This document shows, piece by piece, positions 10,809 to 32,468 of a stretch of 64,000 nucleotides of DNA. Source of the stretch: Blastococcus sp. HT6-4 (GTDB lineage Bacteria; Actinomycetota; Actinomycetes; Mycobacteriales; Geodermatophilaceae). The notes below the pieces were generated by a model that worked only from the letters and a program-made list of their open reading frames with translations, made no database searches and had not been told where the DNA came from. Numbering within the stretch: position 1 is the first letter of the stretch; each line of letters begins with the position of its first letter. Both the position numbers and the translations under genes were made by a program. The stretch spans positions 992,001-1,056,000 of the forward strand of contig NZ_CP155551.1 in the NCBI RefSeq assembly GCF_039679125.1. Reading direction: 5' to 3'.

Positions 10809-10997
10809 TTACCGGCTGAGTCCGTCCGTCGCGCGCTGTGTGCCCCGGACCCACGTGGTCGTGCGCCGGTCGACGCCGGCCTCCTGCACCAGGTGCCGGC
10901 GCAGGCCCTTGACCACGCCGGCCTGCCCGGCCAGCCAGGCGTACACGCCGGAGGACCCCCGCGGGGCGGTGTCGGCGGGCACCTCCCAGAGGATCAT
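10809..10997 (-). pseudogene. Duplicated C-terminal fragment of a siderophore-interacting protein gene
   Basis: Bases 10867-10995 match 17778-17906 with three differences in 129. They encode the same C-terminal stretch ([34 protein letters not shown]) as the intact gene at 17726-18661. Outside the match nothing of that gene remains, so this is a copied or recombined scrap without function. It interrupts a 378-base gap between island genes. Confidence 0.88.
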
Positions 10998-17725: not shown

Positions 17726-18661
17726 TCAGTCGGAGCCGCGGCCCTCGCGCCAGTACCCCATGAAGGCGACCGAGCAGCGGTCGACGCCGGCCTCCTGCAC
17801 CAGGTGCCGGCGCAGGCCCTTGACCACGCTGGCCTCCCCGGCCAGCCAGGCGTACACGCCGGAGGACCCCTGCGGGGCGGTGTCGGCGGGCACCTCCCAG
17901 AGGATCTCGGTGTCGACGTCCACGTCGGCCAGCTCGGCAGCGGGGGAGGGGGTGAGCAGGGGCCCCAGCTCGCGCACGGTCGCCACGACGGCGGCGGTGA
18001 GCAGCTGCCCGCGCGGGGCGGGGGGAGCACCGTGGGCGGGTGAACGGGGCAGCCAGGTGACCTCGACCCCCGCCGGAGCGGCCACGTCCAGCGCGTCGGC
18101 CGCCGTCGGCACCTCGAGCAGCACCCGGGCCAGCCGGCCTGCGGGAAGGCTCTCCACGATCGCGCAGACGGCCGGCACCGCCGTCTCGTCGCCGGCGACC
18201 AGCAGGCAGGAGGCGTCGGCCGGCGGGTGCCACTCGTAACCGCCGGTCGGGCCGGGGAAGCGGGCGTTCGGGCCGACCAGCACGACCTCGTCACCCGTCG
18301 TGGCCTGCTCGGCCCAGGCGGAGGCGGGGCCGGTGGCGCCGTGCAGCACGAAGTCGACGTCGACCTCGAGGCGCTCCGGGCGGAAGCCCCGGACGGTGTA
18401 GGTGCGGATCGGCATCTGCCGCTCCGGGGGCAGCGCGCGCCACGCCCCGTACCAGTCGTCGCCGGCCGGGCAGTCGAGGATGCCGCGGCCGGGGAGGGGG
18501 AGCATCACCTTGATCCGCTGGTCCCACCCGTTGCTGGCGAAGGCGTCCAGCTCGGGGCCGGTGAAGGTGACCCGGACGAAGCCGGGGCTCAGCCGCTGCA
18601 CCCGGGCCACCCGCACCGGGAACGTGCGGTAGGCGGGGACCTGCACGGTTTCGACGGTCAT
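17726..18661 (-). CDS. Siderophore-interacting protein (ferric-siderophore reductase, ViuB-like)
   Basis: 311 residues. It has an FAD-binding beta-barrel (residues about 15-130, with RTYTVRGFRPERLEVDVDF for flavin binding) and a C-terminal NAD(P)H-binding SIP domain ([35 protein letters not shown]). It would reduce Fe3+ in imported siderophores in the cytoplasm. It is divergent from a siderophore-binding lipoprotein, and an IdeR-like box lies between them. A 129-base piece of its 3' region is copied inside the nearby island. Confidence 0.93.
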   Translation of the reverse strand: MTVETVQVPAYRTFPVRVARVQRLSPGFVRVTFTGPELDAFASNGWDQRIKVMLPLPGRGILDCPAGDDWYGAWRALPPERQMPIRTYTVRGFRPERLEVDVDFVLHGATGPASAWAEQATTGDEVVLVGPNARFPGPTGGYEWHPPADASCLLVAGDETAVPAVCAIVESLPAGRLARVLLEVPTAADALDVAAPAGVEVTWLPRSPAHGAPPAPRGQLLTAAVVATVRELGPLLTPSPAAELADVDVDTEILWEVPADTAPQGSSGVYAWLAGEASVVKGLRRHLVQEAGVDRCSVAFMGYWREGRGSD

Positions 18662-22456: not shown

Positions 22457-22699
22457 TCAGCCGAGGACGGCGGTCCGCACCAGGTACAGCGCGACGACGA
22501 CGACGACGGCGACGGCGAGCCCGAGGTAGAGCCGGCGCTCGCTCAGCCGGTCGGCCTCGGTCTCGTCGGCCAGCGCGAGCGGGTCGGCCCACACCGGGAC
22601 GACCCCGCCGCGCCGGTCGAGTTCGTCCTCGGTGAGGACCACCGGGGGGCTCACGCGGAACGGCTGCCCGGCCCCCGCCAACTGGTGCAGCGCGCTCAT
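22457..22699 (-). CDS. Small single-span membrane protein, last gene of GT2 operon
   Basis: 80 residues, no family recognised. An acidic cytoplasmic part (VVLTEDELDRRGGVVPVWAD) precedes one C-terminal transmembrane helix (LAVAVVVVVALYLV). Its ATG overlaps the stop of the GT2 synthase by 4 bases (ATGA), so it is made together with the synthase and may be a small partner subunit. That role is inferred from the coupling. Confidence 0.75.
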   Translation of the reverse strand: MSALHQLAGAGQPFRVSPPVVLTEDELDRRGGVVPVWADPLALADETEADRLSERRLYLGLAVAVVVVVALYLVRTAVLG

Positions 22700-24180
22700 A
22701 CGGTGACCCTCCCGGTCTTCTCGGTCTTGTCCCAGGTCATCGCGGCCCCGCGGAACTCCTTGACGTAGGCGTCCACGGTGATCGCGCACATCATCGGCCC
22801 GAAGCCGACCAGGTACAGCGCCAGCGGCGTCAGCGGCCGGCCCCAGCGGGTGCCCTCCAGCTTCCGGACGCCGTAGGCCAGGGGGATGCAGAGCACCAGC
22901 CAGCTGTAGACGAACAGCGTCCACACGGTCTCCGCGGTGGCCGACAGTGGCACCGCCCCCGGGAAGGCGGCCGACAGCAGCACCACGAAGGAGATCGTGC
23001 CGGGGAACAGCAGCGCCTCCCGCCAGACCGCGAACCCGGTGCGCGGATCGACGGAGATCGTCAGCGTGATCATGAAGACGAACGTCGCGATCGGCACGAA
23101 CACCGCCGCCCCGAACACCTGCGAGGCCAGCTCGCTGTCGAGCAGGTAGAGCCCGATCAGGCCGATCGAGGTGAGCAGCATCGCGACCGGCAGCAGCAGG
23201 ATGGCGAACCAGAAGATCCCGAAGAAGACGCCACCGAGCCCCGGGTGCACCGATCGGCGGAACCACAGGTGCCGGTACATCGAGGTGATCTGCACGTTGC
23301 CGCGCGCCCAGCGCAGCCGCTGCTTCCACAGCGCGTCCACGCCGGCCGGCTCCTCGGCCAGCACACGGGCGTGCGGCTCGAAGACGACCCGGCGCCCGGC
23401 GAGCTGGGTGCGGAACGTGGTGACGGTGTCCTCGGCCAGCGACGAGGTGTCGATCTGGCCGCCGATCGCCAGCAGGTTCTCCCGGCTGTGCAGCTGCGCG
23501 CCGCCGGCGAGGCAGGCCATGGCGCCGGCGACGTTCTGCGCCCGGCGCGACGCGGCCTGCGCCGCCAGGTAGTCGAAGCCGATGAACCGGGTGATGCCCT
23601 GCGGGTCGCCGCTGCCCTCGCGGATGTAGGCGGTGACCGCGCCGACCGTGGGGTCGGCGAGGTGGCGGGTCATCTTGCGCAGCGACGCCGGCTCGTAGAT
23701 GACGTCGGCGTCCATGATCAGGAGCGCCTCCATCCAGTCGTCGGCGAGGATCTCGCGCAGCCCGTGGTTGAGCGTGTGCGCCTTGCCCTCGCCGCCCTTC
23801 TCGCGGCGCAGGTGCACGACCCGGCCGGGGAACCGCGCGGCGCAGGAGGCGAGCACCGCGGGGGTGTCGTCGGTGCTGGCGTCGTCCACGACGTAGATCC
23901 GCAGCCGGTCCGGCGGGTAGTCCAGGGCCATCAGCCGCTCGATCGAGGTGGTGAGCACCGCGGCCTCGTTCCAGGCCGGGATCACCACCGCGACGTTGGG
24001 CAGGTAGGGCCCGGTCTCCCGGTAGTGGTTGCGCACCGCGTGCAGCGGGATGACCAGGAACTGCGCCAGCCCGGCGACCACGGGGACGGCGCCGATGCCG
24101 ACGAGGACGAGCAGGACGACGGTCAGCACCGTCTCCCCGATGCCTGCGACGTCGGTGCCGGCGGCCAGGACCGCGGTCAC
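22696..24180 (-). CDS. Membrane glycosyltransferase family 2 (processive-synthase type)
   Basis: 494 residues from GTG 24180, which overlaps the stop of the PHP gene (GTGA). One N-terminal membrane helix is followed by the GT-A domain: VVIPAWNEAAVL, YVVDDASTDDT, the D-x-D block LIMDADVIY, and the acceptor/translocation motif QRLRWARG in the Q-x-x-R-W form of cellulose, hyaluronan and poly-GlcNAc synthases. Four to five membrane helices close the protein. It would polymerise or transfer a sugar at the membrane. A PIG-L deacetylase in the same operon points to N-acetylated sugar, as inference. Confidence 0.88.
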   Translation of the reverse strand: MTAVLAAGTDVAGIGETVLTVVLLVLVGIGAVPVVAGLAQFLVIPLHAVRNHYRETGPYLPNVAVVIPAWNEAAVLTTSIERLMALDYPPDRLRIYVVDDASTDDTPAVLASCAARFPGRVVHLRREKGGEGKAHTLNHGLREILADDWMEALLIMDADVIYEPASLRKMTRHLADPTVGAVTAYIREGSGDPQGITRFIGFDYLAAQAASRRAQNVAGAMACLAGGAQLHSRENLLAIGGQIDTSSLAEDTVTTFRTQLAGRRVVFEPHARVLAEEPAGVDALWKQRLRWARGNVQITSMYRHLWFRRSVHPGLGGVFFGIFWFAILLLPVAMLLTSIGLIGLYLLDSELASQVFGAAVFVPIATFVFMITLTISVDPRTGFAVWREALLFPGTISFVVLLSAAFPGAVPLSATAETVWTLFVYSWLVLCIPLAYGVRKLEGTRWGRPLTPLALYLVGFGPMMCAITVDAYVKEFRGAAMTWDKTEKTGRVTV

Positions 24181-24926
24181 CGGGCACCCACGAGCCGGGT
24201 CGCCGAGGCCGCGTCGGCGACCCAGGAGTACCGGCCCACGGTGGTGGCCGCGTGGCTGTCGGTGGACCCGACGAGGGAGACGCCGGCGGCGTCGAGCGCC
24301 AGCACCACGCGCGGGCCGGGGCAGCGCCACTTCTCGTTGACCTCGACCGTCGTCCCGGTGCGGACGGCGGCGGCGGCGATCGCGGCGACGTGCTCGTCGA
24401 GCAGCTCGCTCTCGTGCAGGCCGATCTTGGGCAGCAGTGAGAACAGGTGGGCCAGCTGACCGCGCCCGGCCCGCTCCATCGCCCGGACGGTGGCGTCGAC
24501 GAGGATCGACAGCGCGTCCTCCCCGGACAAGCCGCCGGCGATCTCCTCGAGCGTGCGCCGCGGGCTCCACGGGCCGTCCGGCCCGGGGAACTGGTGGTCG
24601 GCGATGAGGATGCGGTCGACGCCGCCCGGGCCGACGACCAGGTCGTCGGGCACGTCGAGCCGGCCGGAGGCGTCGAGGATCTTGGCCTCCACGCCGGTCA
24701 GCACCTCGAGGCCGTCGATCCGGGGGAGCGCGGAGACCTCGGCGAGGAAGCCGGGCACCCACGTCGTCGACGTCCGGACGTGGTCGACCATGCGGATGCT
24801 GGCCAGCCCGGTGTCCCGCGCGGCGACCAGGTTCTCCAGGGGGGCGCTCACGGCGTCGTCGGACCACGTGGAGTGCACGTGGTGGTCGGTGAGCAGCAGG
24901 TCCAGCTCACCCAGGGCGGTGGTCAT
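24177..24926 (-). CDS. PHP-domain metal-dependent hydrolase
   Basis: 249 residues. The polymerase-and-histidinol-phosphatase fold is marked by DHHVHSTWSDDA at the N-terminus, the RMVDHV block, GVEAKILD and the C-terminal STDSHAA metal ligands. Members remove phosphate from small sugar or amino-alcohol phosphates, or act as nucleases in polymerases; this stand-alone size suits a phosphoesterase. It overlaps both neighbours by 4 bases. In this operon it could dephosphorylate an intermediate of the glycan or conjugate. Confidence 0.87.
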   Translation of the reverse strand: MTTALGELDLLLTDHHVHSTWSDDAVSAPLENLVAARDTGLASIRMVDHVRTSTTWVPGFLAEVSALPRIDGLEVLTGVEAKILDASGRLDVPDDLVVGPGGVDRILIADHQFPGPDGPWSPRRTLEEIAGGLSGEDALSILVDATVRAMERAGRGQLAHLFSLLPKIGLHESELLDEHVAAIAAAAVRTGTTVEVNEKWRCPGPRVVLALDAAGVSLVGSTDSHAATTVGRYSWVADAASATRLVGAR

Positions 24927-25912
24927 CGGTCGGCCTCCTCGGCCACGAGGCCGGCCGGCGGGACGAAGACGTCCTCCAGGTACCGGACGACGGCGAGCTC
25001 GGTGAACGGCACCGCGGCCGGCAGCGGCCGGCCCAGCGCCAGGTCCAGGGCCAGCGACGGCATGTCCACGCCGGCGGCGACGGTCAGCGGCATGGCGCCG
25101 GGGAACCGCGGGTTGACCTCGAGCAGGGCGGGCCGGCCCGCGGCGTCACGACGCAGCTGGACGTTGGCGACCCCCACCAGACCGATCGCGGCGGCCACCC
25201 GGCGGGCGGTGTCCTCCAGCTCCGGGTCGGACACGGTGGCGCCGGCGACCGAGACCCCGGAGTCGACCCGCAGCCGGGACCGCGGGACGGCGGCGACGAC
25301 GTGCCCGTCGGCGTCGGCCAGGGTGTCGACCGAGTACTCGTCGCCGGGCAGGTGGGCCTGCACGAGGATGTCCTCGTCGCTGCCGAGGGCGCGCAGCGCG
25401 GCGGCGTCCTCGACCAGGTGCACGCCGCGGGAACCCGCGCCGCGCCGCGGCTTGACGATGACCGGGTAGTCCCAGCCGTCGGGGTCGGTCGTGCCCAGCA
25501 GCGCGGTGCGCGGGGTGGGCAGCACGTCGGCGCACTGCTGGGCCAGCGCGTACTTGTCCAGGCAGACCTCGAGGGTCTCCAGGCTGGGCGCGGCCAGCGT
25601 CGTGCCGACCTCGTCGAGGCGCTTGCGCTCGGCGGCCAGCCGGGGCAGCTCGACGTCGACGGTGGAGAACAGGACGTCGACCCGCTCGCGCTCGCAGAGC
25701 TCGACGAGGTGGTCGACGAACTCCTCGCCGAGGCCGGGGCGCACCAGGTGCCGCGCGGGGGCGTCGACGAGGTAGAGGCCGCTGGCGTAGCGGTCCATGT
25801 CGGCGGCGAGCAGCTCGACGTCGTCGCGCCGGGCCAGTGACCGGAGGACGGCGATGCCGGCCGGGCCGCCGGCGCCGGTCACGAGGACGCGGGTGGGGGT
25901 GGGGTCAGACAC
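24923..25912 (-). CDS. ATP-grasp ligase (carbamoyl-phosphate-synthase-like)
   Basis: 329 residues from GTG 25912. A pre-ATP-grasp Rossmann part (RVLVTGAGGPAGIAVL) is followed by the ATP-grasp core: YPVIVKPRRGAGSRGVHLV for the nucleotide, ILVQAHLPGDEYSVD, and the Mg-binding E-x-N pair in ALLEVNPRFPGAMPLTV. Such enzymes join a carboxylate to an amine through an acyl phosphate. The amine might be the sugar amine freed by the PIG-L enzyme upstream; that is a proposal. It overlaps the fusion gene by 8 bases and the PHP gene by 4. Confidence 0.88.
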   Translation of the reverse strand: MSDPTPTRVLVTGAGGPAGIAVLRSLARRDDVELLAADMDRYASGLYLVDAPARHLVRPGLGEEFVDHLVELCERERVDVLFSTVDVELPRLAAERKRLDEVGTTLAAPSLETLEVCLDKYALAQQCADVLPTPRTALLGTTDPDGWDYPVIVKPRRGAGSRGVHLVEDAAALRALGSDEDILVQAHLPGDEYSVDTLADADGHVVAAVPRSRLRVDSGVSVAGATVSDPELEDTARRVAAAIGLVGVANVQLRRDAAGRPALLEVNPRFPGAMPLTVAAGVDMPSLALDLALGRPLPAAVPFTELAVVRYLEDVFVPPAGLVAEEADR

Positions 25913-26987
25913 CGAAGGGCTCCCGGGTGCTCGAGGTGGTGGACGGGGCGGACTGGAAGGCGGACCCGCTGGTGGCCCCGACGACGCCACCGGCGTCCCG
26001 GACCACCTCGAGCGGCTCGCAGTACCGGCCGCCGGTGCCGTAGCGGGACCAGTAGCGGGCGGTGGAGAGGATGAAGTCGTCCTCGAGGTAGGCGCGGATG
26101 CCCGCCTGCGAGGCGAAGCTCTTCAGCAGGTCCAGCTTCGTGCGGGTGAAACCGTCGATGCTCACGAACCGGCTGGGCCGGAAGTCGATCGTGGCCGAGG
26201 GGCTCTGGAAGCAGGCCACGGTCGGCACGCTGCGGGTGGCGACGCTGGCCGCCTGGTGGACCGCGCGGTGGTCCTGGTGCCGGTCGTTGGGCGAGTGCGT
26301 GTAGACGATCGTCGGGCGCACTTCCTGCACGACCCGCTCGATGATCGACATGGTCGGGTCCATCGGGCTGATGCGGGTGTCCTCGAGGTCCTCGAGGAAC
26401 AGCCGGGCGCCGATGAGCTCGGCGGCGGCCAGCGACTCGTCCTGCCGGTCGCCGGCCTCGCCGCCGCGGGCGCCGCGGGAGAGGGTCAGGATGACCACCT
26501 GGTCGCCGGCGGAGCGGTGGGCGGCGAGGGTGCCGCCGACGCCGATCTCCACGTCGTCGGGGTGCGCGCCGATGGCGAGCACCGTCTGGCGTGCGGGAGC
26601 CGCGGCGCGCCGGGCCTGGGCCGTCTCGGCCAGCCGGCGGATCGTCGCGGCGAGCGTGTCCTTGGGCACCGGCTTGACCAGGAACTCGTCGGCCTGCCGG
26701 CGCAGCGCGTCCACGGCGTAGTCGACCGACGCGTGCGCGGTCATCACCGTGATCGGGAGGTCGGCGCGCAGCTGGCGCAGCCGGTCGAGGAACTCCAGAC
26801 CCGTCATCCCCGGCATCTCGATGTCGGTGATCGCCGCGTCGAACTCCACCCGCGAGGCCAGGGCCAGCGCTTCCAGAGGGTCGGCGCACGTGGTCACGGT
26901 CATGCCGCCGCGCTGCAGCACGATGCGCACGAAGAGTGCGGTGTCGGGGTCGTCGTCGACGACCAGGACGTGCAGTGCACCGTCCAC
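25905..26987 (-). CDS. Receiver domain fused to PIG-L (LmbE-like) deacetylase
   Basis: About 360 residues from GTG 26987 (GGGAG 8 bases upstream); ATG 27080 and TTG 27149 extend it by low-complexity sequence. Residues 5-120 are a complete CheY-type receiver: acidic DDD, phospho-acceptor D55 (ITDIEMPG), T83 and K105. Residues 135-340 are a zinc deacetylase of the GlcNAc-PI/MshB family with AIGAHPDDVEIG and the C-terminal zinc His pair in NDRHQDHRAV. The fusion implies that phosphorylation acts directly on an enzyme that removes acetyl from an amino sugar. It is first gene of a five-gene coupled operon. Confidence 0.9.
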   Translation of the reverse strand: MDGALHVLVVDDDPDTALFVRIVLQRGGMTVTTCADPLEALALASRVEFDAAITDIEMPGMTGLEFLDRLRQLRADLPITVMTAHASVDYAVDALRRQADEFLVKPVPKDTLAATIRRLAETAQARRAAAPARQTVLAIGAHPDDVEIGVGGTLAAHRSAGDQVVILTLSRGARGGEAGDRQDESLAAAELIGARLFLEDLEDTRISPMDPTMSIIERVVQEVRPTIVYTHSPNDRHQDHRAVHQAASVATRSVPTVACFQSPSATIDFRPSRFVSIDGFTRTKLDLLKSFASQAGIRAYLEDDFILSTARYWSRYGTGGRYCEPLEVVRDAGGVVGATSGSAFQSAPSTTSSTREPFGV

Positions 26988-27234: not shown

Positions 27235-27945
27235 GTGCCTGATCGGTCCGTGCTCGTGGTGGAGGACACCCAGGAGATCCGCGAGCTCGTGACCACGGTG
27301 CTCGAACGCGCCGGCTTCGCCGTGCGGGCCGTGGGCACCGGCGGCGAGGCGCTCGCGGAGGTGCGGCGCGACCCGCCGGACCTCATCGTGCTGGACCTCG
27401 GCCTGCCCGACGCCGACGGCACCGAGGTCTGCCGGCAGATCCGCGCCGAGACGCCCTGCTACGTCCTGATGCTCACCGCCCGCGCCGAGGAGGTCGACCT
27501 GCTCATCGGGCTGGCCGTCGGCGCCGACGGGTACATGGCCAAGCCGTTCTCGCCGCGCGAGCTCGCCGCCCGCGTGCAGGCGATGCTGCGGTTCCCCCGG
27601 ACCGTGCAGCCGGCTGCACCCGGAGCCGTCCCGGAGCCGGAGTCGGTGCGCCGGCTCGCCGAGCTCGAGGTGGACGAGGACAGCCGCGAGGTGCGGGTCG
27701 ACGGCACCGTCGTCGACCTCACCCGGACCGAGTTCGACCTGCTGGCTGCCCTGGCCTCGCGGCCGGGCCGGGTGCTGCAGCGCGAGACCCTCCTGCGGGA
27801 GGTCTGGCAGACCGACTGGGAGGGCAACCTGCGCCTGGTCGAGGCGCACATGTCCAACCTGCGCCGCAAGCTCGTCGCGGCGGGGCTCAACTCGCCCGAG
27901 ATCCGCACCGTCCGCGGGGTCGGCTACCGCCTCGTGGCCGCCTGA
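27235..27945 (+). CDS. OmpR/PhoB-family response regulator
   Basis: 236 residues, GTG start after GGAGGAGGAG. The receiver has E10-D11, phospho-acceptor D54 (IVLDLGLPDADG), LTAR and KPFSPRE. The C-terminal winged helix has TRTEFDLLAALASRPGRVL, EAHMSNLRRKL and RTVRGVGYRL. It is transcribed away from the fusion operon across a 247-base gap and towards the matrix-protein operon. No kinase is next to it; the histidine kinase at 30265-32049 is the nearest candidate partner. It may control both neighbouring operons. Confidence 0.93.
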   Translation: MPDRSVLVVEDTQEIRELVTTVLERAGFAVRAVGTGGEALAEVRRDPPDLIVLDLGLPDADGTEVCRQIRAETPCYVLMLTARAEEVDLLIGLAVGADGYMAKPFSPRELAARVQAMLRFPRTVQPAAPGAVPEPESVRRLAELEVDEDSREVRVDGTVVDLTRTEFDLLAALASRPGRVLQRETLLREVWQTDWEGNLRLVEAHMSNLRRKLVAAGLNSPEIRTVRGVGYRLVAA

Positions 27946-28040: not shown

Positions 28041-28472
28041 TCAGGTGCCGGCGAGCTCCTGCAGCCGCTCGACGCGGGAGTGAGCCAGCACGCCACGGCG
28101 GGCGTCGGCGGCGATCGCGCGGCACAGCGACGCGACCTCCGGGTGCCCGAACTGGCCGCTGGTGCCGGCGAGGGTGGTGGCGGCCGAGGCGACGGCGCTC
28201 GTGTCCCCGGCCCGCGTGTGCCGGTCGATCGCCGAGAGCCGGTGCGGGAGCGCGTCGGCGTAGAGGCCCTCGAGCCGGGCCATCAGCGCCGGGTCCACCA
28301 GGTCGTCGTCCACCGTCCCGCCGTCGTCCCTGGGACCGCCGGGGAGTTCCGCCTGCGCGGCCGGCCCCGTGGTCCGGCCGCGCAGGAAGTCGAGGAGGGG
28401 CCCGTCGGCCACCGGGGAGACGGAACGGCCGGGGGCAGGGGCCGTGGCGTCCCCGATCAGGAGGCTCAGCAC
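28041..28472 (-). CDS. Hpt-like domain protein lacking the phospho-histidine
   Basis: 143 residues from GTG 28472, overlapping the stop of the FN3-like gene by 7 bases. Residues 60-130 have the helical pattern of histidine phosphotransfer domains (LMARLEGLYADALPHRLSAI, then LAGTSGQFGHPEVASLCR). Where active domains read AHTLKGS this one reads ATTLAGT, so the His is Thr99 and the Lys is Ala102. It cannot relay phosphate but might still bind a receiver or kinase. It is last gene of the signal-peptidase operon. Confidence 0.65.
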   Translation of the reverse strand: MLSLLIGDATAPAPGRSVSPVADGPLLDFLRGRTTGPAAQAELPGGPRDDGGTVDDDLVDPALMARLEGLYADALPHRLSAIDRHTRAGDTSAVASAATTLAGTSGQFGHPEVASLCRAIAADARRGVLAHSRVERLQELAGT

Positions 28473-28879
28473 CGGAACCCCTCCGACGGTGCGGACGTCG
28501 CCGTCCAGCCGTAGGGGGTCTGCGCGGTGACGGTGAAGGTGTGGACGCTGCCGGAGGCCCAGTACGTCTGGCTCGCGGTGACGGCGTCGGGCCCCGTCCG
28601 GGCCACGACGAACGTCGTGCCGTTGGACCGGTGGCCGGTGACGACGTACCCGCTGACGTCGGGGGAGGGGCTCGGCGTCCACGAGACCCGGGCGCCGAAG
28701 CCGAGGAAGCACCAGCTCCCGGCTGTGCCCACCGCGGTGGGCGGTGCGACGGTGGCGGTCGAGACGGTGGTGGGCACCGAGGCGGTGTCGCCGAAGCCGG
28801 CCGAGGCGGGGAGCACGCCCGCGACGACGGTGACGACGGTCAGGCCGATCAGGACGAGGGAGCGGTGGAGCGCGGTCAT
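28466..28879 (-). CDS. Exported FN3-like protein with SipW-type signal
   Basis: 137 residues. A hydrophobic leader (LVLIGLTVVTVVAGVL) is followed by ASAGFGDTASV, which resembles the alternate signal peptide (AaFsDt-type site) of TasA/camelysin proteins. The remainder looks like one fibronectin-III-style beta domain (ARVSWTPSPSPDVSGYVV, HTFTVTAQTPYGW) with Cys near both ends. Its ATG overlaps the stop of the signal peptidase gene, so the peptidase and this likely substrate are made together. Confidence 0.75.
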   Translation of the reverse strand: MTALHRSLVLIGLTVVTVVAGVLPASAGFGDTASVPTTVSTATVAPPTAVGTAGSWCFLGFGARVSWTPSPSPDVSGYVVTGHRSNGTTFVVARTGPDAVTASQTYWASGSVHTFTVTAQTPYGWTATSAPSEGFRC

Positions 28880-29487
28880 GGCCGGGCCTCCTCGTTGCGG
28901 GTGGGGCGCCAGATGGTCAGCAGCAACCAGCCGGCGAGCAGGGCGGGGGCGCCGTAGAGCAGCACCTGGTTGAGCACCGGCGTGCGGAGCAGCTGCAGGA
29001 CGTGGCCCAGCCCGGGGACCACGGCCTGCACCTCGTAGACGGTGTCGCCGACCAGGCCGGCGGTCCACGGGTCGACCGTCTCGTTGCCGTCGCCCTTGGT
29101 CTGCACCGTCACGCCGCCGTCGGCCGCCCGCTCCACCGTGACCACGCGGTGGGTCACGAGGCTGCGGGGGCCGATCGGCATGTGGTACGTGATCACCATG
29201 CCCTCGGTGATCTCCGCGACGGGGATCGGGGTGGCGACGGTGACGTCGCCGGGCTCGATCTCCGGGGCCATGCTGGCGGTGAGCATGGTCATCGTGCGGT
29301 AGCCCAGCAGGTGCGGTCCGACGGCCAGGACGGCGAACATCACGACGGCGAAGCCCACGATCCCGCGGACCAGCCACGGGGCCAGCCGGCCCGCGATGCG
29401 GTGGGCCCGGCCGGCGGCGGAGTGCTCGTCCGTGGCCCGGGACGACGCGGCTCCCACCGGGTGGCGGGCGGGGAGGACGGCGGTCAT
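28876..29487 (-). CDS. Signal peptidase I, SipW/archaeal type
   Basis: 203 residues. A long Ala/Arg N-terminus precedes a membrane helix (GIVGFAVVMFAVLAVG), then the catalytic Ser72 in LTASMAPEIEPGDV and the ER-type catalytic His113 in SLVTHRVVTVER (bacterial housekeeping enzymes use Lys). KGDGNETVDPW matches the next conserved block, and a C-terminal helix anchors the protein. It would cleave the alternate signal peptides of the TasA-like and FN3-like proteins on either side. Confidence 0.88.
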   Translation of the reverse strand: MTAVLPARHPVGAASSRATDEHSAAGRAHRIAGRLAPWLVRGIVGFAVVMFAVLAVGPHLLGYRTMTMLTASMAPEIEPGDVTVATPIPVAEITEGMVITYHMPIGPRSLVTHRVVTVERAADGGVTVQTKGDGNETVDPWTAGLVGDTVYEVQAVVPGLGHVLQLLRTPVLNQVLLYGAPALLAGWLLLTIWRPTRNEEARP

Positions 29488-29519: not shown

Positions 29520-30104
29520 TCAGCGGGCGGTGCCGGTCTTCTGGACGGCGTCGAACTGCAGCGAGACCATGCTCTGCTGCCCCTGGAACTGGTTGCCGGC
29601 CGTCCCGGGCAGCGACACCGTGAGCAGGAAGTGGTCGGCCTGGCCGGCCTTCATCGCCGACGAGGCGGCCAGCGGGACCTGGCCGGTGAGGCCGCCGGTG
29701 CGCACGACGGTCGGGGTGCCGGCGCAGCTGTTGGCCGCCGTCCAGGCCACCGGGCAGGAGGTGACGGTCAGCTGCAGACCACCCGGTCCGGTGAGCACGC
29801 CGGAGCCGGTGGCGCCGATGGTCATCGACAGGGCACCGAGGTCGAGGCTGCCGGTGTTGGCCAGCGTGACCGCGCGGCTGACCGAGGCACCGGGGACCAG
29901 GCCCGAGGCGTCGACCGGGACGGTGGCGGTGGTGGTGGCGTCGATGTTGATCGTGCCGGTCGCCACGGGCACCGAGACCGGGGTGGTGCTGTCGCTGAAG
30001 CCGCCGAAGGTCCCCATGCCGGCGACGGCGGCGGCGGCCGCGAGAACGCCGAGCGAACCGACGACCTTGGCGGTGGTGGTCGATCCGGCCGTGGTGATGC
30101 CCAT
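29520..30104 (-). CDS. TasA/camelysin-like exported protein (alternate signal peptide)
   Basis: 194 residues. The leader KVVGSLGVLAAAAAVAGMG and cleavage region GTFGGFSDSTT fit the SipW-dependent signal family. The mature part is a Thr/Val/Gly-rich beta-sandwich (RAVTLANTGSLDLGALSM, HFLLTVSLPGTAG) of the camelysin/TasA type, with two Cys (TSCPV, NSCAG) likely forming a disulfide. Relatives assemble into matrix fibres in Bacillus; whether this one does is unknown. It opens an operon: this gene, 32-base gap, signal peptidase, FN3-like protein, Hpt-like protein. Confidence 0.82.
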   Translation of the reverse strand: MGITTAGSTTTAKVVGSLGVLAAAAAVAGMGTFGGFSDSTTPVSVPVATGTINIDATTTATVPVDASGLVPGASVSRAVTLANTGSLDLGALSMTIGATGSGVLTGPGGLQLTVTSCPVAWTAANSCAGTPTVVRTGGLTGQVPLAASSAMKAGQADHFLLTVSLPGTAGNQFQGQQSMVSLQFDAVQKTGTAR

Positions 30105-30264: not shown

Positions 30265-32049
30265 TCAGGCGGTGCCGCGGGGGAGCGTCATGGTGAAGGT
30301 GGTGCCCTCGCCCTCGACGCTGACCAGGTCCAGCGAGCCGCCGTGGGCGGTGGTGATGGCCTTGGTGATGGTGAGGCCGAGCCCCACCCCGGGAACGGCG
30401 TTGCGCTGGGCGGTGGACGACCGGAAGAACCGGGTGAACAGCTGCCCCCGCTCGCCGGCCGGGATGCCCATGCCGGTGTCGGCGACCGAGAGGAGGGCCA
30501 CGGGGGCCGCGTCGGGGCGGTGCTCGGCGACCAGCTCGCCGTCGGGCAGCTGCCAGCCCGGCCGCAGCGACAGGCGCACCTGGCCGCCGGCGCGGGTGAA
30601 CTTCACGGCGTTCGACACCAGGTTGTCGCAGGCCTGGCCGAGCCGCACCGCGTCGCCGGACACCACGAGGCCGTCGGGCGGCACGTCGACGACGATCTCC
30701 ACACCGGCGGCGGCCGCGGCCACGCGGGCCGTCTCCTCGGCGGCGCGGACCACGGCGGCGAGGTCGACGTCGGCCGGCTGGAGAGAGAACCGGCCGCTGT
30801 CCACCTGGGCGGTGAACAGCAGGTCGCCGACCAGGCGCAGCAGCCGCTGCGCGTTGCGCTCGACGGTGGACAGGTACTGCCGCTGCTCGTCGGTCAGCGG
30901 CTGGTCCTCGTCGTCCATGACCAGCTCGAGGTATCCGAGGATCGAGCTGAGGGGGGTGCGCAGTTCGTGGCTGATGAGGCTCACGAACTGGTCCTTCATG
31001 CGCTCGGTGGCGCGCGCCTCGGTCATGTCGGTGCCGACGAAGTTCCAGCCGGCGTGCACCCCGCGGTCGTCCGAGCGGGGCGTGACGGCGACCGAGACGG
31101 TGCGCCGGCTGCCGTCGGCGGCGACGTAGGTCCAGTCGCGGACGTCGCTGCCCTCCTCGCGGGCGACGTGCACCAGGGCGGACAGCGGGGTTGCGGCGCC
31201 GGTGCTCCCGGCCGCGGCGGTCAGCTCCTCGGACAGGTGGAAATCGAGGATCGAGCGCCGGCGGACGACGTCGGGTCGCAGCACCCCGAGCATCTTCTCC
31301 GCGCCGGGGTTCCAGACCCGGATCGTGCCGTCGAGGTCGGTGCCGATGATCGACTGCTCGGTGACCGCGTCGATGACGCTGGTCATCGTCTGGGCGCGAG
31401 CGGCCAGGATGCGGGAGGCGGTGTCGAGCTCGTCGGCGCGGCTCCGGACCTGGGCGAGCAGCGCCGCCTGCTCCCGCTGCAGCCGCTCGATGTCACGGGC
31501 CTGGTCGGCCACGCGGCGGGTGTTCTCGTGGATCGCGATGCTGCCGACGGCGACGACCAGGGGGCCGAGCAGCAGGGCGCCGGGCACGATGGCCGCGGCG
31601 GCGGGGTCGCCGAGCAGGTACGGCACGGCGAGCACCGCCGTCGTCCCGGCCACGGCGACGGCCACCCCGCGGCGGGTCGCGGCGGTGGACAGCACCCACA
31701 ACGGGCTGAGGAGGAGGAACAGCGTCGTCGGGGAGGCGGTGCCGGCGTACAGCAGCCCGACGGCGAGCAGGTGAGCGGTCGGCACGGCCGGCGAGCCCGC
31801 GACCGCGGGGGAGCGGCGGGCCGTCCAGGCCACCGCGGTGGCGGTGAAGGCGACGGCGAGGCCGGCGTGCACCAGGGTGGGCTCGGCCACCGGCAGCGCT
31901 CCCGCGAGCAGCAGCACGGCGGCCACGCCGAACACGACGGCGGAGGACAGCGTGCCGCGCCCGGCCTCCCGCCCCGGGCGCAGCGCGGTCGGCCGGCGCG
32001 ACGGACCCGCGCGGTCCGGCGCGGGGCGGTCGAGGACGGCGACGCTCAC
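30265..32049 (-). CDS. Membrane PAS-domain sensor histidine kinase
   Basis: 594 residues from GTG 32049, overlapping the receiver gene stop (GTGA). Six hydrophobic helices (residues about 35-210) are followed by a short coiled coil (IERLQREQAALLAQVRSRAD), a PAS domain (IIGTDLDGTIRVWNPGAE), HisKA with LISHELRTPLSSILGYLEL and an HATPase_c domain with N box LVSNAVKFT, DTGMGIPAGERGQLF and GLGLTITKAI. All catalytic boxes are intact. It forms a two-component unit with the receiver-only protein; the OmpR-type regulator at 27235 may be a second target. Confidence 0.93.
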   Translation of the reverse strand: MSVAVLDRPAPDRAGPSRRPTALRPGREAGRGTLSSAVVFGVAAVLLLAGALPVAEPTLVHAGLAVAFTATAVAWTARRSPAVAGSPAVPTAHLLAVGLLYAGTASPTTLFLLLSPLWVLSTAATRRGVAVAVAGTTAVLAVPYLLGDPAAAAIVPGALLLGPLVVAVGSIAIHENTRRVADQARDIERLQREQAALLAQVRSRADELDTASRILAARAQTMTSVIDAVTEQSIIGTDLDGTIRVWNPGAEKMLGVLRPDVVRRRSILDFHLSEELTAAAGSTGAATPLSALVHVAREEGSDVRDWTYVAADGSRRTVSVAVTPRSDDRGVHAGWNFVGTDMTEARATERMKDQFVSLISHELRTPLSSILGYLELVMDDEDQPLTDEQRQYLSTVERNAQRLLRLVGDLLFTAQVDSGRFSLQPADVDLAAVVRAAEETARVAAAAAGVEIVVDVPPDGLVVSGDAVRLGQACDNLVSNAVKFTRAGGQVRLSLRPGWQLPDGELVAEHRPDAAPVALLSVADTGMGIPAGERGQLFTRFFRSSTAQRNAVPGVGLGLTITKAITTAHGGSLDLVSVEGEGTTFTMTLPRGTA

Positions 32050-32468
32050 GTCACCGGCTCCCGCACGGTCAGGGCCCGGACCTGGTGGACCAGGCCGGCG
32101 ACGGTGAACGGCTTGGCGAGGTAGGCGTCGGCGCCGGCCGACAGGCCCCGGGCCACCTCGTCGGGGGAGGCTCCGGCGGAGAGCAGCAGGATGCGGATGC
32201 CTGCGGTGGCCGGGTCGTCGCGCAGCGCCGAGCAGATCTCCAGGCCGGTGGCGCCGGGCATCGAGACGTCGAGCACGGCGAGGTCGGGCAGCTGCGCCCG
32301 CGCGGCCGCCAGCGCCGCCGAGCCGTCGGAGGCCGACGTGACCACCTGGCAGCCGGCCTTGCGGACGGCGAGGCAGACCAGGTCCCGGATGTCGGCCTCG
32401 TCGTCGGCCACGAGCACCCGGACGATGCCGGCGGGTCCGCTGCCGGGGGCGTGCAGAACCGCGTCCAC
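32046..32468 (-). CDS. Single-domain response regulator (receiver only)
   Basis: 140 residues, GTG start with GGGAG upstream. A CheY-like receiver: RVLVADDEADIRDLV, phospho-acceptor Asp in LAVLDVSMPGATG, LLLSAG and AKPFTVAGL. It has no output domain. Coupled by 4 bases to the kinase downstream, so it is probably its direct phosphate acceptor or a regulator of its activity. The 202 bases before it show nothing recognised beyond its own start site. Confidence 0.9.
   Translation of the reverse strand: MDAVLHAPGSGPAGIVRVLVADDEADIRDLVCLAVRKAGCQVVTSASDGSAALAAARAQLPDLAVLDVSMPGATGLEICSALRDDPATAGIRILLLSAGASPDEVARGLSAGADAYLAKPFTVAGLVHQVRALTVREPVT

What the first reader, a model, noticed from the sequence alone, without database searches (positions are those of the whole stretch)
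22457..26987. Five fully overlapping genes: receiver-PIG-L fusion, ATP-grasp, PHP, GT2 synthase, small membrane protein
Every junction overlaps (8, 4, 4 and 4 bases), so the five proteins are made as a unit. Together they offer an amino-sugar deacetylase, a carboxylate-amine ligase, a phosphohydrolase, a membrane sugar synthase and a small membrane partner. That is the same logical set as mycothiol assembly (glycosyltransferase, phosphatase, MshB deacetylase, ligase), but with a processive-type membrane GT2. I propose a pathway that builds a deacetylated glycan or glycoconjugate decorated by amide ligation and switched by phosphorylation. I know of no described system with this exact combination.
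Basis: partly seen in the sequence, partly recalled or inferred. Interest (0 to 1): 0.88.

Follow-up and report, generated by a model that had tools for sequence, protein, structure and literature searches.

The report
Kinase-wired glycan-building gene cluster
Five overlapping genes in a soil actinomycete belong to a kit, shared with many other actinomycetes and usually lying near its own sensor kinase, that probably builds an amino-sugar glycan at the membrane and may be switched by phosphorylating one of its enzymes directly.

Summary
In detail: five minus-strand genes overlap by 8, 4, 4 and 4 bases. The module is larger than described. In 79 named actinomycete loci found through the PHP gene (80 of 170 relatives kept), 76 keep PIG-L/ATP-grasp/PHP/GT2 in order on one strand; a receiver is fused to PIG-L in 74; a histidine kinase homologous to the window's own (30265-32049) lies near it in 73. 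Of the other 6, four are cut by a contig end where the kinase is expected; two have none downstream and are cut upstream. The small membrane protein is a constant partner: a 4-base-overlapping single-TM ORF follows 65 of 69 GT2 genes and 0 of 832 control genes. It is not mycothiol: MshB and MshC lie elsewhere in the genome. Best reading: a sensor kinase and receivers control, at enzyme level, a membrane pathway that makes a GlcNAc-type glycan or glycolipid, frees its amine and amidates it. A sister exosortase cluster shows similar chemistry with another phosphatase-type enzyme, and one genome carries a hybrid. Product, processivity and phosphotransfer are inferred. My paper searches found no description.

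The parts
25905..26987 (-). Receiver domain fused to PIG-L (LmbE-like) GlcNAc-type deacetylase
   Evidence: Pfam Response_reg and PIG-L; D55, T83, K105 and H142, D144, D145, H240 invariant in 29 sequences, D12/D13 at least 90% (A12); fold match to BshB/Dac
24923..25912 (-). ATP-grasp ligase (PRK12767 / ATPgrasp_Ter type)
   Evidence: PDB 2pn1 1e-43; alignment A14
24177..24926 (-). PHP-domain metallohydrolase, probable phosphatase
   Evidence: H16, H18, D24, H49, E80, H111, H160, D223, H225 invariant in 10 sequences (A10)
22696..24180 (-). Membrane GT2 synthase (PgaC/HAS-like) with C-terminal W-x-K-T-E-K motif
   Evidence: D100, D157/D159, E250-D251, Q287-R288-x-R290-W291 invariant in 33 sequences; model pLDDT 83.9, fold search
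22457..22699 (-). Single-pass small membrane partner of the GT2 (E-x7-E motif before the TM stretch)
   Evidence: equivalent ORF after 65 of 69 GT2 genes with a 4-base overlap versus 0 of 832 controls; E-x7-E in 77 of 77 such ORFs
30265..32049 (-). Membrane PAS histidine kinase; its homologue lies after the GT2 in other genera
   Evidence: HisKA, HATPase_c, PAS; homologues at 59 loci downstream and 14 Blastococcus loci upstream
32046..32468 (-). Single-domain (CheY-like) receiver overlapping the kinase gene by 4 bases
   Evidence: Response_reg 85.9 bits only; aligned with receivers of other loci
27235..27945 (+). OmpR-type response regulator, divergent; neighbour in Blastococcus, not part of the shared module
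   Evidence: Response_reg + Trans_reg_C; conserved in Blastococcus loci
28041..28472 (-). HPt-domain protein (neighbour)
   Evidence: Hpt 29.9 bits
28466..28879 (-). Small secreted-looking protein, weak FN3 match below cut-off (neighbour)
28876..29487 (-). SipW-like signal peptidase I (neighbour)
   Evidence: TIGR02228 60 bits, cut-off 51.85; blastp cluster shared with 16 of 24 Cellulomonas loci
29520..30104 (-). M73/camelysin-family, TasA-like secreted protein (neighbour)
   Evidence: Peptidase_M73 42 bits, cut-off 22.5; TasA model 22.7 bits, cut-off 450, so not TasA proper

Best explanation
A two-component-controlled pathway that assembles an amino-sugar glycan or glycolipid at the membrane. 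Step 1 (inferred): the membrane GT2, held or gated by its single-TM partner, transfers a GlcNAc-type sugar from a nucleotide sugar to a lipid or growing chain. Step 2 (inferred from family): the PIG-L domain removes an acetyl group on the cytosolic face and exposes an amine. Step 3 (inferred): the ATP-grasp enzyme joins a carboxylate to that amine as an amide. Step 4 (inferred): the PHP enzyme removes a phosphate from a precursor or product. Control (inferred): the membrane PAS kinase phosphorylates stand-alone receivers and the receiver fused to PIG-L, so that the sensor acts on the enzyme itself and not only through transcription. Shown: the gene set, its order, the kinase linkage, intact catalytic and phospho-acceptor residues, and a genome whose PIG-L and ATP-grasp resemble those of an exosortase-linked sister cluster.
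For: Core order in 76 of 79 loci; receiver fused in 74 of the 77 loci that have PIG-L (2 of the other 3 cut inside it by a contig end, 1 in two frames); kinase near it in 73 of 79. Families found in 12 or more genus labels at these loci by blastp clustering are only ATP-grasp, GT2, PIG-L, PHP, kinase and single-domain receivers; the next has 5 (the small protein is too short and diverged to cluster). Small partner 65 of 69 versus 0 of 832. Outside the class, G865 and G669 also have the module beside a more distant kinase. Sister cluster: GT2, exosortase-family protein, ATP-grasp, UDP-GlcNAc 2-epimerase, HAD hydrolase, PIG-L. G214 hybrid: PIG-L and ATP-grasp nearer the sister type (50-53% and 50%) than five module members (42-47% and 33-37%), GT2 and PHP of the module type. 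PIG-L model nearest BshB-type and diacetylchitobiose deacetylases. G011's isolated PHP has lost H49, D110, D223 and H225 equivalents.
Against: No biochemistry was possible; each substrate is unknown. G038 (L010) has the fusion and one receiver but no kinase in its 19.9 kb stretch, and Sanguibacter L085 and Janibacter L099 have none downstream of GT2. In Blastococcus the kinase lies 3.3 kb upstream behind other genes, a DNA-binding OmpR regulator sits in between, and the kinase survives in genomes that lost most of the operon (G018, G011, G014), so it has other targets or the wiring is looser. G053 keeps receiver-PIG-L with a cellulose-synthase-like GT2 but shows no ATP-grasp (E 1e-25), PHP (1e-10) or module GT2 (1e-60) in its genome, so PIG-L can work without them. 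G018 retains a PHP alone with nearly intact residues. Between genera the distance correlations of the proteins are only 0.16-0.69. PIG-L has no predicted export route here, so it could hardly trim an exported polymer (inference).
Confidence: 0.4

Rival explanations
1. A PNAG/chitosan-like exopolysaccharide synthase of the biofilm matrix: the GT2 is processive, the small protein is its PgaD-like partner, and the neighbouring TasA-like and SipW-like genes supply protein fibres.
For: Best NCBIfam hit of the GT2 is PgaC/IcaA (122 bits); fold resembles hyaluronan synthase over about 500 columns (TMq 0.58); an M73 gene and a SipW-like gene lie nearby in Blastococcus and the SipW-like family occurs in 16 of 24 Cellulomonas loci; G053 couples receiver-PIG-L to a cellulose-synthase-like enzyme.
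Against: 122 bits is far below the PgaC cut-off of 422; the top Foldseek hit is an archaeal mannosyltransferase; the partner has one hydrophobic stretch by the scan, where PgaD has two (recall); no CE4 deacetylase among the module's shared families; no reason for an ATP-grasp; M73 genes also occur in relatives without the module (33 of 60 genomes hold one).
Confidence: 0.27
2. A soluble low-molecular-weight product (pseudo-thiol or natural product) built by mycothiol-like steps.
For: Deacetylase, ligase, phosphatase and glycosyltransferase are the mycothiol set (recall); the PIG-L domain is nearest BshB.
Against: MshB and MshC are elsewhere in the genome; the GT2 is an integral membrane protein with a constant membrane partner; the ligase is ATP-grasp, not the CysRS-like MshC (recall).
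Confidence: 0.1
3. The receiver on PIG-L is not a switch but a dimerisation or docking module, or a phosphate sink for the kinase.
For: One natural variant (G214, L037) has PIG-L without a receiver and no kinase in its stretch, so the chemistry does not need it; G038 has the fusion without a kinase nearby.
Against: Asp55, Thr83 and Lys105 are invariant in 29 sequences; kinase and fusion occur together at most loci examined.
Confidence: 0.15

Closest known systems
Exosortase-linked sister cluster (L141-L143: two Blastococcus genomes and one other of the family; found here)
   Same: PIG-L, ATP-grasp and PgaC-like GT2 with a hydrolase of phosphatase type; in L143 ATP-grasp is 37% and PIG-L 40% identical to the window's
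   Different: HAD instead of PHP, UDP-GlcNAc 2-epimerase and exosortase-family protein present, no receiver
PgaC/IcaA poly-GlcNAc synthases with PgaD/IcaD
   Same: GT2 catalytic motifs and a small membrane partner
   Different: Score far below cut-off; partner has a single TM stretch; no CE4 deacetylase among shared families
Mycothiol (MshA-D) and bacillithiol pathways
   Same: PIG-L-family deacetylase followed by amide ligation logic (recall)
   Different: Separate mycothiol genes in the same genome; membrane GT2 here
PorX and other response regulators with enzyme outputs
   Same: Receiver joined to an enzyme domain instead of a DNA-binding domain (PorX architecture from recall; PorX 8tef is row 49)
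   Different: Output here is a sugar deacetylase within its own biosynthetic operon
B. subtilis tapA-sipW-tasA matrix operon (recall)
   Same: M73/TasA-like protein and SipW-like peptidase near the operon
   Different: TasA and SipW models are not met (22.7 of 450 and 50.9 of 190 bits); neighbours only

Membership tests
PIG-L/LmbE deacetylase | PIG-L domain with His, Asp and distal His metal ligands and an Asp base | tested here: met
   Pfam 90 bits; H142, D144, D145, H240 invariant in 29; ligand pattern read in passages of PMC4101496
PIG-L/LmbE deacetylase | Deacetylates a GlcNAc substrate | not testable with these tools
   needs an assay
Two-component system | Kinase with HisKA and HATPase; receivers with Asp, Thr/Ser, Lys | tested here: met
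Two-component system | Phosphotransfer between these partners | not testable with these tools
   genomic linkage only
Mycothiol biosynthesis | PIG-L over the MshB cut-off | tested here: not met
   20.6 bits against 224.35; a protein over the cut-off is at C1:853066
PgaC/IcaA PNAG synthase | NCBIfam equivalog cut-off | tested here: not met
   122.2 of 422.3 bits
PgaC/IcaA PNAG synthase | Makes a polymer (processive) | tested here: inconclusive
   HAS-like fold but another kind of GT ranks first; QxxRW also occurs in non-processive GT21 (recall)
CpsB-type PHP tyrosine phosphatase (recall) | Match to a CpsB/CapC family model | tested here: not met
   only PF02811 listed for the PHP protein at E 0.1 and no such NCBIfam hit among 11 listed
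Exosortase-associated glycan cluster | Exosortase gene in the cluster | tested here: not met
   5 operon proteins and 10 neighbours gave no exosortase hit in Pfam; the whole genome was not searched for one

The most novel reading that the evidence does not exclude
A new kind of two-component output: a sensor kinase whose shared, module-encoded receivers carry no DNA-binding domain and whose effector is a receiver-fused sugar deacetylase, so that the cell turns glycan N-deacetylation, and with it amide decoration of a membrane glycan, on and off without new transcription. The product may be an amine-bearing glycolipid anchor, as the exosortase-linked sister cluster hints.
Probability: 0.28. Interest if true: 0.82.

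Novelty: new variant of a known kind. Interest (0 to 1): 0.63.

Why it matters
A conserved gene module of many actinomycetes, for which my searches found no description, has a compact set of parts that can be tested one by one. If right, it adds a biosynthetic enzyme to the outputs of two-component systems, gives the PRK12767-type ATP-grasp proteins a defined chemical setting, and points to an unknown surface glycan or glycolipid in genera such as Cellulomonas and Microbacterium.

Tried and rejected
Mycothiol-like pathway: rejected by separate MshB and MshC. MmpA as a relative of the small protein: a 14.4-bit hit did not recur for six homologues; two paper searches gave no match or, in the listing, nothing apt. 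Distance correlation of the proteins (62 loci): r 0.87-0.95, 0 of 500 permutations as high, but mostly genus structure; between genera 0.16-0.69, so weak evidence. TasA/SipW as part of the module: kept as neighbours only, since M73 genes occur without it. Isolated PHP decay as a sign of dependence: G011's copy has pN/pS 0.65-0.66, but two in-module PHPs of that clade give 0.46, and G018's lone copy gives 0.18, so this is weak.

Literature: 10 searches, open-licence library only. Seven bear on the module: 16, 38, 43 and 87 returned no paper; 44 (23 papers, 20 listed) and 74 (4 listed) gave censuses, unrelated papers and family reviews by their listings; one gave one paper, not opened. One search matched 4,398 papers, of which I saw only the 10 listed. 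Of PMC4101496 I read the outline and 12 passages.

Searches used an out-of-frame reference for the PIG-L part and are void; replace them. The 'HK upstream 15' printed includes L122, where the kinase precedes a second receiver-PIG-L; one search gives 14 upstream and 59 downstream.
Full report
Observation. The five genes are real and lie as stated, on the minus strand, with overlaps of 8, 4, 4 and 4 bases. Domain searches give receiver + PIG-L in one protein, a PRK12767/ATPgrasp_Ter ATP-grasp protein, a weakly scoring PHP protein, a GT2 of the PgaC type and an 80-residue protein without a Pfam family. The proteins keep their active sites: phospho-acceptor Asp55 with Thr83 and Lys105, and PIG-L His142, Asp144, Asp145 and His240, are invariant in 29 sequences; the GT2 DD, DAD, ED and QRxRW motifs are invariant in 33; nine PHP metal-ligand-type positions are invariant in 10.

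Co-inheritance near the window. The names of the closest relatives place the window in Blastococcus. Of 23 genomes of the genus (own included), 15 hold all five genes by gene calls on fetched stretches (for G009 the small gene), 5 hold parts (G006 lacks GT2 and the small gene; G008 is decayed; G014 keeps only receiver-PIG-L at this place; G018 and G011 keep only PHP), G007 shows a piece of PIG-L with a stop, and G004 and G020 gave no module gene. The PHP marker is in 19 of 112 family genomes, all of this genus, in 8 of 394 class genomes, two of them Blastococcus, and in 4 of 396 phylum genomes, the own one included and one weak. Such a patchy spread fits horizontal transfer and repeated loss (inference). 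In G011 the lone PHP has lost several metal-ligand residues and its pN/pS is 0.65, but in-module PHPs of that clade give 0.46; in G018 the lone PHP looks nearly intact (0.18). So dependence of PHP on its partners is not established.

The real extent of the module. A scan of one genome per species found 170 relatives of the PHP; the best 80 were kept (79 loci), and by their names all are Actinomycetota; the rest were not seen. Six-frame profile searches show PIG-L, ATP-grasp, PHP and GT2 in this order on one strand in 76 of 79. The 3 misses are L049 (no GT2) and two loci cut by contig ends (L067, L113). A receiver is in the same frame as PIG-L in 74. Of the 5 others, L067 and L113 lack PIG-L through contig ends, L085 and L109 are cut inside it, and L121 has the two domains in different frames. 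A kinase homologous to the window's 30265-32049 protein is downstream (0-2 receivers between) in 59 and upstream in 14 Blastococcus loci. Of the 6 without one, L047, L048, L067 and L118 are cut by a contig end on the side where it would lie; L085 and L099 have none in the 6 kb after GT2 and are cut on the other side. Blastp clustering of all called genes at these loci finds only the six module families in 12 or more genus labels; the next has 5. The intervening receivers aligned are of two single-domain types without a DNA-binding domain.

Loci outside that set: G865 and G669, outside the class, have a more distant kinase beside the full core; G059 has one divergently upstream; G038 has receiver-PIG-L, the core and one receiver but no kinase in its 19.9 kb stretch. 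In G386 ATP-grasp and PHP lie on one contig, and kinase, receiver, receiver-PIG-L, GT2 and a 65-residue protein on another.

The small protein. A single-TM ORF of 43-92 residues follows the GT2 in 77 of 79 loci; all 77 hold an E-x7-E pattern, 76 with Arg at the fifth or sixth place between, and 73 overlap the GT2 by exactly 4 bases. With a control, 65 of 69 GT2 genes have it with exactly a 4-base overlap, against 0 of 832 other genes in the same loci (68 of 69 against 22 of 832 for any start between -25 and +80).

What the parts look like. The AlphaFold model of the GT2 (pLDDT 83.9) matches the mannosyltransferase PcManGT first by E-value (TMq 0.50) and hyaluronan synthases over about 500 columns (TMq up to 0.58), so polymer or glycolipid are both open. 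Receiver-PIG-L (pLDDT 86.8, pTM 0.70) matches BshB-type and diacetylchitobiose deacetylases; by sequence B. subtilis BshB (6p2t) is first. The ATP-grasp protein is nearest 2pn1, deposited under a carbamoylphosphate synthase name.

Two informative comparisons. First, a sister cluster in two other Blastococcus genomes and one further genome of the family (L141-L143). In L143 it holds a PgaC-like GT2, an exosortase-family membrane protein, a related ATP-grasp (37% identical to the window's), a UDP-GlcNAc 2-epimerase over the WecB cut-off, a HAD hydrolase and receiver-less PIG-L genes; L141 and L142 carry matching genes, though there only the exosortase/ATP-grasp ORFs were run against families. 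In L142 exosortase-family and ATP-grasp domains are one 753-residue ORF. Similar functions with a different hydrolase suggest that PHP acts as a phosphatase and that PIG-L and ATP-grasp act on an amino sugar of a membrane or surface glycan. Second, G214 (L037) is a hybrid: its PIG-L and ATP-grasp are nearer the sister type, its GT2 and PHP the module type, and its stretch has neither receiver nor kinase. So the chemistry can run without the switch. G053 shows the reverse: receiver-PIG-L, receivers and kinase beside a cellulose-synthase-like GT2, STAS and SpoIIE proteins, with no module GT2, ATP-grasp or PHP found in the genome at E 1e-60, 1e-25 and 1e-10.

Not mycothiol. The genome carries MshB at 412 bits and MshC at 640 bits elsewhere.

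Neighbours. In the window and in Blastococcus relatives an M73/TasA-like gene, a SipW-like peptidase and a small secreted-looking protein lie between the operon and the kinase; 16 of 24 Cellulomonas loci carry the same SipW-like family, in L060 with an M73 gene beside it. This favours an extracellular-matrix setting but rests on two lineages, and M73 genes also occur in relatives without the module.

Mechanism and its limits. The linkage, order, partners and residues are shown; the order of steps, the sugar, the carboxylate, processivity and phosphotransfer are inferred. Against exclusive wiring: the kinase persists in Blastococcus genomes that lost most of the operon, a DNA-binding OmpR regulator lies beside it there, and G038 has no kinase nearby.

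Verdict. In the papers I could search (10 searches, open-licence library) I found no description, which does not exclude one in subscription journals.

Noticed in passing
L141, L142, L143: Exosortase-linked sister cluster with PIG-L, PgaC-like GT2, ATP-grasp, UDP-GlcNAc 2-epimerase and HAD hydrolase; in L142 (5638-7899) exosortase-family and ATP-grasp domains share one 753-aa ORF.
   Followed up: partly
L009:5751-13483: Receiver-PIG-L with a cellulose-synthase-like GT2, STAS, HATPase-receiver-SpoIIE protein, two receivers and a PAS kinase: a different synthase under the same signalling set.
   Followed up: partly
window 28041-28472: HPt protein of 143 aa; several Blastococcus relatives have about 220 aa with receiver similarity (10 of 15 labelled REC), so the window's copy may have lost that part.
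   Followed up: no
L018:11242-15252: In G014 the M73 and HPt genes of the neighbouring cassette occur twice next to the lone receiver-PIG-L.
   Followed up: no
window 10809-10997: A 62-codon ORF closely resembles part of the protein encoded at 17726-18661 (seen by eye), apparently a partial duplication.
   Followed up: no
L122: Agrococcus locus has a second, diverged receiver-PIG-L (331 aa) right after the kinase.
   Followed up: no
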